Origin: Heterotrichella gracilis
Lineage: Eukaryota > Sar > Xanthophyceae > Tribonematales > Xanthonemataceae
Length of the DNA stretch: 64,000 nt
Reading direction: 5' to 3'
NCBI GenBank assembly: GCA_032358255.1
Contig: JAULBX010001558.1
Location: forward strand, 62,001-126,000
The translations under genes were made by a program, and so were the position numbers. Below the pieces are notes generated by a model. It worked only from the letters and a program-made list of their open reading frames with translations, did not search any database and was not told where the DNA came from. Positions 1 to 63,635 of this stretch are shown here, in pieces (within the stretch, counting starts at the first letter, position 1; every line of letters starts with the position of its first letter).

Positions 1-3000
1 ACACCACCTGGAGTTGGACCCCCCACCCCACCCCATCCTGCCTCGGGAGGTGGCGCAGCCAGGCCCGTCAGCCCGCAACGTGGGTACCTCCCCCAGCAGG
101 GCGTGCGCCGAGAAGCGACAGAAGCTGGGCCATTTAGCCCACCTGGGCCCGCCTCACTTCCCCCACTCTCGGCTACAGCTCTTCCTGGAGTCACCCGACG
201 AGGCAGCACACCAGCTGTGCACCTTGGTGGGGGAGGCAGTGCGGGAGGCGGTGGCACACAAAGGGCTGCCAGACCTGCAATACCCTAACCCTAGGGTTCA
301 GGTGCCGACACAGAAGGCGCGCAAAACCCTATTAGGCAGCGTGCGCTTCACCTCCCCCTCCTGCTTCGCCATGGCGGCCGAAATTAGGAAGTCCAGCGGG
401 CAATCAGCCTCCACTAGCGGGGGCGCCACCCCCGCGGCGCCGTTCTCCCCCCCTGCCATTGCGCAGCTGCTGGCAGATGCAGCCAATGAGTTGCTGGCAA
501 GTGGGGCATCAGTGGAGGCCATGTGGGTGGTGGAGCGGGTGGAGGCTACATCAGGGCACCTCAATTTCTACCTCCTGGGTAGGTCCACAGTATTTTATTG
601 TGGCACCTCATTTTCAGTTTTCATATCCTATAGCCCTGCTATAGCACCTCGATGTGCATTCCCATTGCCAGGAATTTCCATTTGTATGTGCCTGGCGCTT
701 CAATGTATATTACCTGGCACCTCAATGCTCACTTCCTGGGTGGCTCCTCTGCAGGCGAGGAGCAGGCGGCGGAGGCGGCATTGGCGGGGCGGGGGGCAGA
801 TGGAGCGCACGAAACAGGTGGGCATTCTGTTTGGGCCACATGTGGCATTGGCACTGGTGTGGGAGCATGTTGGGAAAGGCCATGGGCTCATCTATGCATG
901 GGAGGTGCTAGTGGTGGGCACATGCATGCAGGATTGTACTGGGCGCTATGCCGTGTTGGGTGCATGCCACATGCATGCAGCCTCATGTTGGGTGGTAGGT
1001 CGGCATGGAGGACAATGACGGTAGGCCAGCTGTAAGCCAATCAGTGTGTGCATGTGAGCCTTAGGATTGGCAACGTTTGCTGATCATGGCAATATGGTTG
1101 CTGATCAGTGCGAGCATTTGAAATGCGGCACAACGGCGAGTTGAGCTCATGGAACTGTCATTGGACAGGAGAGGGGCGTGTAAATGCACCTGCATTCTGC
1201 CCTCCCTTACCCTACCCGGCACCAATTAGTCGGGTAGTCACAGCGCCAATTTACACCGCCCTCATTTTCCAACCAATGACCCGCTCCCACCCAACCCCCA
1301 CCAGGAGACCCCGACTCCACCCACTCTTCCGACACTGATGCCCCCATTGGGCACCGCACCAGCCCACCAGCCACCACCAGCCACCAGCACCAGCCCACCA
1401 TTTCCACCCGCTCACCAGCGTGCGCGTCCCCGGCGACCGCCATGATGCCCTCCCCTCCTCCACCCATGCGCCACTCCCTTGAGCTGCGCCTCCTGCCCTC
1501 CACACCAGCCCTGGTGGAGCAGGAGTGGCCGTTGTACCGCAAGTACCAGGTGGGGCCTCTTATAGGGTTTGTTGCAGAGGTTTGTAGGGTTTGCGACGTT
1601 GCCCAGTGTATTGGATATACCAGGTGGGGAGCGCAAGACGAGTTTTATTTTGTTGTTAGGGTTGATAACAAACAGGGTTTTGTGGCGGTGGGCACCTCTG
1701 GTGGAGGAGGAGTGGCGGCTGTACCGGAAGAAGCGGGTGCACAGGACTTCTATAGGGTCGCTAATAGGTCTCTTGTCGGGGTTTCAAGCTGTTTTTGTGG
1801 CAATTGCTAGCGATGGTGGAGTAGGAGTGGCCGTTGTTACGCATTTACCAGGTGGTGGGGGCACAGGATTCCTGTAGGGATATTGCAGATCTGTTCTTTG
1901 AAGTACCAAAAAGCCACAACCACCTACCACCACCCCCCGTATTCAACCCCCTTACACGTGCAGATGCTCCACCATGGCGAGAGCCGCGAGGCCACCACCG
2001 CCTCCCAGTTCAGCCGATTTCTGGTTGACACTCCTCTCACCCCCCTGTCGAGGGCACAGGCGCAGGCGCAGGGGCTGCAGGCGCCGCACCACGGGTTGGG
2101 CACTTTCCATCACCAGTACTGGCTAGACGGTGAGGGGTGGGGAACCTGGGTTGTGTTTGTATGGGGGGGAGAGGGTTGAGATCCATGGAAGATTGGGTGC
2201 AAAGGGCTGGTTGCCTGTTGTTAAGATAATACAGGTTGTTTGGTTGTGGATTATATGGTAAGCTCTTTTGCTATTTGCTGCGACCAGCACACGGATGACC
2301 TCCATCATTGCAGCTGGGGTTGCCGCCTGTGCCGCCATCGTTCTCACCACCGCCATCACCACAGCCATCACCACTAGCACATGCAGCAGCAGCAGCAGCT
2401 GTATCACCATTACCATCGTAGCCTGCCACTGCAGCCTGCGCCACCATCGCCCTTTACTACCACCACCATTACCCTGCTGTGTCATCAGTGCAGCTGCCAT
2501 CACCACAAGCACCACTGTCACTATCACCATTACCAACCACTACTTCCACCGCTGTGCAGGCCGGCTGATAGCGGTGGGTGTGCTGGATATCCTGCCCCAC
2601 TGCGTGTCATCAAAATACTTTTTCTGGGACCCGGATTTTGCGTTCCTGTCCCCGGGGAAGCTGGCTGCACTGAAGGAGATTGAGCTGGTGAAGCAGGTAC
2701 AACTACAATCAAGAATGCAGTTGCAATGGCTATAAGGCCGGGAACCAGGAGGATGTCCTGTGAAGTGCGGTTGCCAATGAACTTGTTAACACAACTTGTT
2801 ACATAAACATAGTTGCCAACAATCGTATCCCCCTGTTAGGCAATAAATGTAGCCCAAACCCTCACCCTCAATCCACCTCCCCTGCCTGCGCCAGGCCTCC
2901 GCCACCTGCCCCCGCCTGCACCACTACTACCTTGGCTTCTACATCCACTCCTGCCCGCGCATGCGCTACAAGGCGGACTACAAGCCATCGGACCTGCTGT

Positions 3001-3969
3001 GCCCAGTCACATACACATGGGTGCCATATGACAGGTGCCAGATGATTTTGGCAATGATGTGCTGCATCTTCCATCTTACCTTTTTTGGTTTTTGGTTTTC
3101 TAATTCATTTTCTTGTCACAAGTACGTCCTCCCTGTACCAAAGCTATATAATAGCCGAGTATATGATAGCCAAGAGTTGTACCTGCTGTATGTTCATGGG
3201 CGCAAGATTCTGGCCTGCCAAGATTGGGATACCTGCTGATACTTCGTCGCATACGCGTAGTGCCGGGAAGCAGATCATGGTGCCCCAGCGATGTAATGCG
3301 CCCAAACTGTGCCACCCCAACCCCCAACCCCTCACCCCCTTTCTGCACATCGCAGGGTATCCGCCTCCCTGGACGCCTCACCCTTCTGCAACCTGGCAGC
3401 ACTCCAAGAGGCAGGGGCCACCCCCCCACCCCCCACCACCCCCTCCGCTCCCCCCTCCCCCCGCTCCATGCTAGCCACCACCAGTGTGTGCTACGCTGCG
3501 GGTGGCTCCCACCCCCCGCGACTCCTCTCTTTGGAGCAGCTGGCAGATGAGGAGCTGATCGATGAGGTGGGTGAGAGGTGGATGGGTGTGTAAGGGCGAG
3601 GGGGTGCAGTGGGTGCGGGTAGAAGTGGCGGTGTGCGGGTGTTGAGTGTTAGGGGAGTGAGAAGAGGGGGGAAGGGGTAGACAACTGGCTGGCTAGCATT
3701 GAGTCACAAATCCACAATAGGCTGCTTAGGGTGCGTGTGTGCGCAAAGTTCAACAGATAGTGGAAAGAGTTCCAGGCCCCATTTGCTTGGCTGACTGCTA
3801 CCCTGGACACATGCGACCAGGAAAAACCCTACACCCTCCCTGTCACCCACCCTGCCTGGCCCTCCCGCAGGATGCGTTTGATGGTTTGGTGGAGCGGGTG
3901 GAGGGGTGGTGGCGCGCTGTGGGGCCTGTGGGCAGGAGCCTGGCCTATGTGCTGGGAGGGGAGGAGTAG
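1..3969 (+). CDS. ATE1: Arginyl-tRNA--protein transferase (5' part outside window)
   Basis: The enzyme moves arginine from Arg-tRNA to acidic N-termini in the Arg/N-degron pathway. Exons with consistent phase: 179-578 (the open frame also runs upstream), 755-817, 1305-1549, 1964-2129, 2560-2696, 2895-3034, 3356-3566 and 3871-3969 (stop TAG). Family signatures appear in order: LYRKYQ followed directly by [60 protein letters not shown] and [13 protein letters not shown]. These form the ATE C-terminal (GNAT-like) domain. The upstream part ([20 protein letters not shown]) resembles the middle region of plant ATE1. The N-terminal Cys-rich domain lies outside the window. Pro/Ser-rich stretches at 1305-1450 and 3420-3520 are extra compared with animal ATE1. 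The intron after 1549 holds two decayed copies of the preceding exon end. Confidence 0.92.
1513..1862 (+). repeat. Exon echoes in ATE1 intron
   Basis: The exon end at 1513-1552 (GTGGAGCAGGAGTGGCCG, then TGTACCGCAAGTACCAG and the donor) recurs at about 1698-1745 and again at about 1812-1862. Each copy extends into the following intron sequence. The second copy changes the tyrosine-rich motif. The third has a stop in the original frame (GAGTAGGAGTGG). The copies are diverged tandem duplications that span the exon-intron junction. Confidence 0.85.
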
Positions 3970-63449: not shown

Positions 63450-63635
63450 GTGGGTTGGTGTGTTGGAGGTGTAAGGGGCAGCGAGTGCTGTATCAAAAAT
63501 CTGCCTGCAATATTTGTGAAATTACTATATATATTTAAATATTATGGGTTATTGTTACACTGCGCGCCCATCCTTGACTCTGGTGCGCTTGAGCCGCTGC
63601 TGGAGGTGCTGCCGGAGGGGGATGCGCAGGTGGGG
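63378..63635 (+). repeat. Echo of the ARM-like exon end
   Basis: GCTCCCATCCTTGACTCTGG and about 65 following bases at 63383-63450 are repeated at 63565-63632 with two or three changes. The donor CGCAGGTGGG is kept and the frame is open. No acceptor directly precedes the copy, so I class it as an intronic echo, but it could be a nascent extra repeat. Confidence 0.85.

What the first reader, a model, noticed from the sequence alone, without database searches (positions are those of the whole stretch)
1513..63635. Exon echoes: decayed partial exon copies in adjacent introns across nearly all genes
In ATE1, the CBS gene, the ankyrin gene, the nitrilase, the coiled-coil gene, the two-helix protein gene and the BEACH gene, more than 20 short tandem copies of exon ends (about 25-120 bases plus flanking intron) sit in neighbouring introns or just past the gene. 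They range from near-identical (58381 and 58579) to barely recognisable (60743). Usually the splice junction is inside the duplicated unit, and all but one copy has lost a splice site, frame or both. This looks like a continuing genome process: junction-spanning tandem duplication that lengthens introns, supplies raw material for new repeats and alternative splice sites, and then decays. I know of exon duplication and intron tandem repeats, but not of this density as a genome property. Seen directly: the copies. Inferred: a common mechanism.
Basis: partly seen in the sequence, partly recalled or inferred. Interest (0 to 1): 0.78.

Follow-up and report, generated by a model that had tools for sequence, protein, structure and literature searches.

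The report
Telomere-repeat insertions flanked by exon-edge copies
In this green alga, pieces of exon edges are copied a second time inside neighbouring introns, often with a short stretch of telomere repeat wedged between the two copies, which looks like the scars of DNA-break repair and makes introns longer.

Summary
The copies are real. In the window, 35 direct repeat pairs (score >=40) lie 20-600 bp apart, none 600-1200 bp apart, and none are inverted within 10 kb. In 264 kb there are 93 direct pairs, 4 in shuffles, 1 inverted. They sit on exon edges: 6 of 60 pairs are wholly noncoding, about 22 expected.

The "tandem duplication" reading mostly fails. Of 75 pairs, 64 are split by a spacer. 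At >=87% identity, 18 of 24 spacers show no similarity to either flank.

Telomeric repeats are over-represented in spacers: 15 of 52, 3.9 expected. Starting from the telomeric repeats instead: the 21-mer (TTTAGGG)3 occurs 834 times. Of 70 such sites, 28 are flanked by direct copies of 19-102 bp, against 35 of 700 random intron points; inverted, 0 of 70.

Best reading: staggered breaks near exon edges, filled in so that the edge is duplicated, sealed with filler that is sometimes telomeric; the extra copy then decays. The mechanism is inferred. Most spacers (37 of 52) carry no recognisable telomeric repeat, telomerase polarity was not seen, and no intron gain was found.

The parts
1511..1568 (+). 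ATE1 exon end and donor (source copy)
   Evidence: 77% to 1698-1758; 1512-1553 is 88% to 1814-1855
1698..1758 (+). echo 1 of the ATE1 exon end
   Evidence: spacer without recognised ITS
1814..1855 (+). echo 2 of the ATE1 exon end
7140..7169 (+). echo upstream of CBS-gene exon 7225-7348
   Evidence: 96.7% over 30 bp to 7225-7254; unrelated 55-bp spacer
7225..7254 (+). CBS-gene exon start (source copy)
7269..7323 (+). CBS-gene exon segment (source copy)
   Evidence: 80% to 7511-7565
7511..7565 (+). echo in the next intron
7806..7866 (+). CBS-gene exon end (source copy)
   Evidence: 76% to 7993-8051
7993..8051 (+). echo in the next intron
13068..13180 (+). ankyrin-gene exon end with donor (source copy)
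   Evidence: 88.5% over 113 bp to 13290-13402
13181..13289 (+). spacer, non-telomeric, single-copy in the genome
   Evidence: one search finds only itself; no similarity to flanks
13290..13402 (+). echo of the ankyrin-gene exon end
15041..15087 (+). ankyrin-gene exon end (source copy)
   Evidence: 89% to 15148-15194
15124..15146 (-). telomeric repeat (CCCTAAA orientation) in the spacer, one base from the echo
15148..15194 (+). echo
27438..27493 (+). echo of acceptor and exon start, nitrilase gene
   Evidence: 87.7% to 27569-27625
27492..27553 (+). two telomeric clusters (27492-27512, 27533-27553) in the spacer
27569..27625 (+). acceptor and exon start, nitrilase gene (source copy)
39499..39608 (-). 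coiled-coil gene exon end (source copy)
   Evidence: 73% to 39715-39818
39715..39818 (-). echo
39880..39951 (-). echo near exon 39992-40122
   Evidence: 85% to 39962-40033, near-contiguous tandem
39959..39982 (-). telomeric cluster (CCCTAAA orientation)
40539..40597 (-). exon edge of the coiled-coil gene (source copy)
   Evidence: copies at 40718-40828 and 40819-40876
40616..40824 (+). three telomeric clusters (40616-40638, 40697-40713, 40767-40824) between and beside the copies
40732..40773 (-). echo 1
   Evidence: 93% to 40835-40876
40835..40876 (-). echo 2
46001..46502 (-). three related copies (46001-46160, 46213-46295, 46346-46502)
47562..47624 (-). echo near exon 47694-47937
   Evidence: 78% to 47681-47745
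47665..47689 (+). telomeric cluster next to the copy
57541..57590 (+). echo of acceptor and exon start, BEACH gene
   Evidence: 82% to 57648-57698
57750..58191 (+). contiguous tandem array, period about 174, exon with donor
   Evidence: 80%
58377..58794 (+). contiguous tandem array, period 196, 97.3%; telomeric cluster 58481-58514 inside the unit; abuts an N gap
58895..58977 (+). third copy after the N gap
   Evidence: 89-90%
59054..59207 (+). contiguous tandem array of an exon end with donor, period 61-63
59549..59586 (+). BEACH-gene exon end with donor (source copy)
   Evidence: 94.7% to 59668-59705
59668..59705 (+). echo after an unrelated 81-bp spacer
61974..62012 (+). BEACH-gene exon end (source copy)
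   Evidence: 82% to 62054-62092
62029..62048 (-). telomeric repeat in the spacer
62054..62092 (+). echo, 5 bp after the telomeric repeat
63379..63454 (+). BEACH-gene exon end with donor (source copy)
   Evidence: 94.7% over 76 bp to 63559-63634
63455..63558 (+). spacer, non-telomeric, single-copy in the genome
   Evidence: one search finds only itself; no similarity to flanks
63559..63634 (+). echo

Best explanation
The echoes are scars of double-strand-break repair near exon edges. A break with long complementary overhangs (tens of bases) has both overhangs filled in, so the overhang sequence A is present on both sides. Filler DNA, in part telomeric TTTAGGG repeats, is added or captured between the ends before they are joined. 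The result is A-filler-A, in direct orientation by necessity. If A spans a splice junction, the outer or inner junction can still be spliced, so the event is tolerated and only lengthens the intron; the spare copy and the filler then decay. Shown: direct, local, exon-edge copies; mostly non-contiguous; telomeric enrichment between copies; telomeric insertions with flanking copies genome-wide. Inferred: staggered break, fill-in, joining, tolerance by splicing. Not shown: which enzymes act.
For: Direct only: 93 direct, 1 inverted in 264 kb. Short range only: 35 pairs at 20-600 bp, 0 at 600-1200. Not tandem units: 64 of 75 pairs with a spacer; 18 of 24 spacers unlike both flanks at >=87% copy identity. 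Filler: 15 of 52 independent spacers with telomeric repeats, 3.85 (sd 1.87) expected. Reverse ascertainment: 28 of 70 sites with perfect (TTTAGGG)3 are flanked by direct copies, against 35 of 700 random intron points and 10 of 140 positions shifted by 190 bp (Fisher P 2e-15 and 2e-8); degenerate repeats 25 of 115 against 15 of 600. Cleanest cases: L042 and L039, with A directly abutting the repeat on both sides, and L017:4477-4570, 34 of 35 identical around TGTTTAGGGTTTAGGGTTTAGGGT. TTTAGGG is the telomere: all 45 matches to (TTTAGGG)7 lie on 11 contigs within about 300 bases of a contig end. Telomeric repeats lie nearer exon edges than uniform in their own intron: mean rank 0.356, se 0.028, n 100. 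Precedents seen in passages: PMC2246262, PMC7215372 (telomeric repeats inserted at breaks, some with target duplication), PMC4202315 (staggered breaks lengthen Daphnia introns), PMC8355091 (CST-Pol alpha fill-in of 3' overhangs makes small duplications).
Against: 37 of 52 spacers carry no recognised telomeric repeat, and 42 of 70 young telomeric sites have no detected flanking copy (short duplications >=8 bp in only 2 of those 42). In 13 of 28 sites with copies, telomeric repeats also lie in or beside the copies, which fits duplication of a unit that already held the repeat. Only 5 of 28 have both offsets <=4 bp. Telomerase priming predicts polarity; it was not seen: 13 for, 12 against, 3 ties. 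Six of 24 high-identity spacers do resemble a flank and 11 of 75 pairs are contiguous tandems. No empty-site comparison was possible.
Confidence: 0.55

Rival explanations
1. Telomeric repeats come first and act as fragile or recombining sites; local tandem duplication of a unit that includes the repeat then gives A-repeat-A. The telomeric repeat is cause, not filler.
For: In 13 of 28 young sites telomeric repeats also lie before, after or inside the copies, against a background of 4.1% per 36-bp intron window (same call). The 58377 array has the telomeric run inside its unit.
Against: In 15 of 28 the repeat is only between the copies. At high identity most spacers are not echoed outside the pair (18 of 24). 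Many pairs have no telomeric repeat at all (37 of 52 spacers).
Confidence: 0.2
2. Replication-based template switching or slippage (backward jump on the same strand, with short templated inserts) makes local direct copies; telomeric filler is incidental.
For: Direct orientation and short range; uneven clustering, e.g. 18 pairs in L017.
Against: Two non-telomeric spacers have no second source in the genome (only two tested). Telomeric repeats are clearly enriched. Template switching would be expected to give some inverted copies; 1 against 93 seen.
Confidence: 0.13
3. Ordinary contiguous tandem duplication of exon edges followed by rapid intron turnover that erased the intronic half.
For: 11 of 75 pairs are contiguous, 6 of 24 high-identity spacers resemble a flank.
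Against: At 88-98% copy identity an intronic half of the same age should still be visible; 18 of 24 show nothing, and no spacer row of 64 has net-positive alignment to its flank.
Confidence: 0.1
4. Assembly artefact or chance similarity.
For: One array abuts a 100-N gap (58795-58894).
Against: Copies differ at many sites and shuffles give almost none; a bacterial contig sample of the same assembly (L003) has none.
Confidence: 0.02

Closest known systems
Interstitial telomeric sequences inserted at double-strand breaks (Nergadze and colleagues; PMC2246262 and PMC7215372, passages seen)
   Same: Short internal runs of the host's own telomeric repeat, absent from exons, some flanked by direct duplication of the target attributed there to staggered breaks.
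   Different: There duplication is rare: 6 of 130 rodent, 4 of 25 primate (PMC2246262) and 3 of 66 horse loci (PMC7215372). Here 28 of 70 young sites have copies of 19-102 bp, density is far higher, and sites lean to exon edges. Insertion was shown there with empty orthologues; not here.
Staggered-break insertions in Daphnia introns (PMC4202315, passages seen)
   Same: Direct repeats from staggered breaks, proposed to lengthen introns passively.
   Different: Exon-intron repeats there are 4-12 bp and belong to newly gained introns; here copies are tens of bp, in existing introns, with telomeric filler, and a test for intron gain was negative.
Small tandem duplications by CST-Pol alpha-primase fill-in (PMC8355091, passages seen); paired-nick duplications in plants (Schiml 2016, recalled, paper not held)
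   Same: Duplication of an overhang by fill-in at both ends before end joining; always direct.
   Different: Those are contiguous; here most pairs have filler. CST dependence is untested here.
Tandem genomic duplication as intron gain (review PMC3443670, passages seen)
   Same: Duplicated segments that carry splice sites.
   Different: No intron whose two ends are in-register copies: 0 of 374 at score >=12, 0.3 expected.

Membership tests
Break-repair interstitial telomeric insertions | insert is the host's own telomeric motif | tested here: met
   (TTTAGGG)7 only at ends of 11 contigs; (TTTAGGG)3 at 834 places, reversed control 0
Break-repair interstitial telomeric insertions | short, internal, outside exons | tested here: met
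   21-35 bp perfect runs at 70 sites; 0 of 70 in predicted exons; degenerate clusters 3 of 112 in exons
Break-repair interstitial telomeric insertions | flank changes typical of end joining, including target duplication | tested here: met
   28 of 70 with flanking direct copies; deletions cannot be seen without an empty site
Break-repair interstitial telomeric insertions | bases at the break in register with the insert, or telomerase polarity | tested here: inconclusive
   13 junctions listed show no clear excess; polarity 13 for, 12 against, 3 ties
Break-repair interstitial telomeric insertions | empty orthologous site | not testable with these tools
   no related genome held
Contiguous tandem duplication | copies head to tail, unit length equals period | tested here: not met
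   met in 11 of 75 pairs, not in 64
Intron gain by tandem duplication or staggered break | donor and acceptor regions are in-register copies | tested here: not met
   0 of 374 introns at score >=12, 0.3 expected
Transposon or introner insertion with target-site duplication | insert belongs to a repeated family | tested here: inconclusive
   two non-telomeric spacers are single-copy; others not searched
Regulatory telo-boxes | near promoters, conserved position | not tested
   no transcript data; most repeats here are in predicted introns

The most novel reading that the evidence does not exclude
Exon edges in this alga are hot spots of staggered breaks, and telomere machinery (telomerase for filler, CST-Pol alpha for overhang fill-in) is a regular route by which they are sealed, so that telomere-style repair is a major source of intron growth across thousands of genes.
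Probability: 0.22. Interest if true: 0.85.

Novelty: new variant of a known kind. Interest (0 to 1): 0.6.

Why it matters
Staggered-break repair with filler has been proposed as a way introns lengthen or arise, but its traces are usually too short to read. Here the copies are tens of bases long, the filler carries a recognisable label (the telomere repeat) and every stage of decay is present, so rate, position and tolerance of the process can be measured in one genome. It also gives a simple account of why exon fragments litter introns: only duplications that span a junction leave the message intact. The unexplained part, the strong preference for exon edges even among copies of >=88% identity (1 of 22 wholly noncoding, 9.5 expected), is a testable question about where breaks fall in transcribed genes.

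Tried and rejected
Intron gain: tested and negative. Telomerase polarity: tested, no bias. In-register bases at junctions: no clear excess. Short target duplications at telomeric sites without long copies: only 2 of 42 at >=8 bp. Decay bias as the sole reason for exon-edge anchoring: unlikely, since the bias is strongest at >=88% identity, though the gene models are my own. Low-complexity masking as the reason: repeated with masking off, same result. Genome source of non-telomeric filler: two spacers, only self matches. Naming the organism: the 18S search did not complete. A rubisco-large search found nothing, while 43 chlorophyll a/b-binding matches were found. A CP26-like protein scores best with PDB chain 6kac_S, which I recall as Chlamydomonas reinhardtii, ahead of 8bd3_S, recalled as Chlorella; the other LHC protein gave a different order, so 'chlorophycean green alga' is an inference. 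Paper searches for telomeric repeats in algal introns and for partial exon copies listed nothing that describes this; listings only, apart from passages of PMC6549138, which mention interstitial telomeric repeats in C. reinhardtii and suggest end-to-end fusion.\n\nLimits of the counts: gene models come from a small HMM I trained on 244 kb of this genome, supported by full-length Pfam hits for several proteins but not by transcripts; some echoes are labelled exons by it. It merges neighbouring genes (ATE1 and CBS) and its intergenic calls are weak. One search dropped 4 of 79 pairs too near a sequence end. Pairs overlap in some arrays and are not all independent. The 70 young sites are the first listed on contigs C2-C47 out of 834 matches (which count overlapping registers); left out were C15:104514, already in L017, and C46:403873-403907, close to a contig end. 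The Fisher test against shifted positions pairs a 200-bp flank (28 of 70) with a 160-bp control; at 160 bp the site count is 27 of 70.\n\n
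Full report
What was checked. The window is 64 kb of contig C18 in a 68.5-Mb assembly of 903 contigs. One of the 20, L003, comes from a 33%-GC contig with long open frames and looks bacterial by eye. I left L003 and L004 out of the gene-model work.

The copies are real and local. Self-comparison of the window gives 35 direct pairs of score >=40 at 20-600 bp, 0 at 600-1200, 1 at 1200-3000, 8 at 3-10 kb and 1 at 10-30 kb; inverted pairs are 0 up to 10 kb and 1 beyond. 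Over 264 kb there are 93 direct pairs, 4 in block-shuffled sequence (all in the two pieces that hold N) and 1 inverted. Density is uneven: of 18 nuclear samples, 13 have pairs and 5 have none, and one (L017) holds 18 of the 75 analysed pairs.

Gene models. I trained a small splice-aware HMM on 18 samples and the window; it settled on donor AG|GT(A/G)NG and acceptor CAG|G, with 378 introns. Predicted proteins give near full-length Pfam matches to nitrilase, BEACH and syntaxin, and matches to ankyrin, ATE_C and CBS. The models are not supported by transcripts.

Exon edges. Exon ends recur inside their own intron in 12 (5' side) and 17 (3' side) of 320 introns, and 0 and 0 with exon ends of other introns. 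Copies contain a junction in 45 of 72 pairs, 27.2 by shift. With masking off, 6 of 60 pairs are wholly noncoding against about 22.5 expected, and at >=88% identity 1 of 22 against 9.5; copy midpoints lie a median 24 bp from an exon edge, 86.5 for random placements. Mismatches by codon position of the exon copy are 86/855, 89/862 and 150/856; a ratio near 1.7 is what one constrained and one free copy would give (inference).

Not simple tandems. Of 79 pairs within 1 kb, 75 could be examined: 11 are contiguous and 64 have a spacer of at least 15 bp. No spacer row aligns to its flanks with a net-positive score, although 9 of 64 exceed their shuffled null by 0.10. A local search at >=87% copy identity finds spacer-flank similarity in 6 of 24, null 1 of 48. 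So most pairs are A-spacer-A.

Telomeric filler. CCCTAA/TTAGGG occurs at 8.0 per kb in spacers, 1.3 in introns, 0.5 in intergenic sequence, 0.2 in exons and 0.4 in shuffles (spacers within one array are not independent). By locus, 15 of 52 independent spacers hold a telomeric cluster, 3.85 (sd 1.87, maximum 10 in 200 draws) expected. The reverse test starts from the repeat. Degenerate clusters: 116 in 254 kb against 8 in a shuffle; 103 of 112 in predicted introns, 3 in exons; flanking direct copies at 25 of 115 against 15 of 600 intron points; inverted 0 of 115 against 4 of 600. Perfect 21-mers: 834 in the genome, reversed control 0; 14,381 at up to 3 mismatches, control 111, overlapping registers counted. 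Of 70 fetched sites, 28 have flanking direct copies of score >=36, against 35 of 700 random intron points and 10 of 140 shifted positions; inverted 0 of 70. Copies are 19-102 bp, median 50.5; perfect telomeric runs 21-35 bp. In 15 of 28 the telomeric repeat is only between the copies, in 13 also in or beside them.

TTTAGGG is the telomere of this genome: 45 overlapping matches to (TTTAGGG)7 lie on 11 contigs, six near the start and five near the end, contig lengths checked for the latter. A telomerase RNA-binding domain is encoded (2 matches on C626).

Position. Telomeric clusters within introns lie nearer the edges than uniform (mean rank 0.356, se 0.028, n 100; 0.365 for the 76 without a flanking copy). 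Introns with a cluster: 80 of 379, median 339 bp against 248; longer introns have more room, so this alone proves nothing. CCCTAAA lies on the coding strand in 63 of 103, P 0.03, weak. Echoes labelled as exons by the HMM could draw clusters towards 'edges', so this test needs transcript-based models.

Explanation. A-filler-A in strictly direct orientation is the product expected when a break with complementary overhangs is filled in at both ends and joined with filler. Telomeric repeats at breaks are known from mammals, with duplication in 6 of 130 rodent and 4 of 25 primate loci (PMC2246262) and 3 of 66 horse loci (PMC7215372). Fill-in of 3' overhangs by CST-Pol alpha, the telomere C-strand machinery, makes small duplications in mouse and human cells (PMC8355091). 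Staggered breaks have been proposed to lengthen Daphnia introns, with repeats of 4-12 bp (PMC4202315). I saw passages of these papers, not whole texts. The survivors span junctions, I infer, because a purely exonic event would break the message while a junction-spanning one leaves a usable splice site. That does not explain the shortage of purely intronic copies, which stays open.

What speaks against it. Most spacers (37 of 52) have no recognised telomeric repeat, 42 of 70 young telomeric sites have no detected copy, polarity expected from telomerase priming is absent (13 for, 12 against, 3 ties), and nearly half of the flanked sites have telomeric repeats outside as well. Telomeric filler is therefore a clear but partial component, and whether telomerase made it or fragments were captured is open. 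No intron gain was detected.

Verdict. I rate it a new variant of a known kind.

Noticed in passing
G000:C1 (L003): The 894-kb contig C1 has 33% GC in the sampled 10 kb and long uninterrupted frames resembling histidine kinases and response regulators: probably a bacterial contaminant or associate in the assembly (by eye).
   Followed up: partly
window 52706-53005: Coding minisatellite-like repeat (about 33-bp unit, acidic/alanine-rich) inside a predicted exon of the BEACH gene.
   Followed up: no
window 18331-24866: Predicted gene G3 holds two long, similar protein segments a few kb apart, and the window has 8 direct pairs at 3-10 kb: an older, larger duplication unlike the echoes.
   Followed up: no
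window 58795-58894: A gap of 100 N lies directly after the 97%-identical 196-bp array; copy number there is uncertain.
   Followed up: no
introns of L005-L022 and the window: Telomeric clusters read CCCTAAA on the coding strand in 63 of 103 cases (P 0.03); TTTAG|GG resembles an acceptor, so selection is possible.
   Followed up: no
L017 (G000:C15:100001-110000): Very dense local duplication: 18 of 75 analysed pairs in one 10-kb sample.
   Followed up: no
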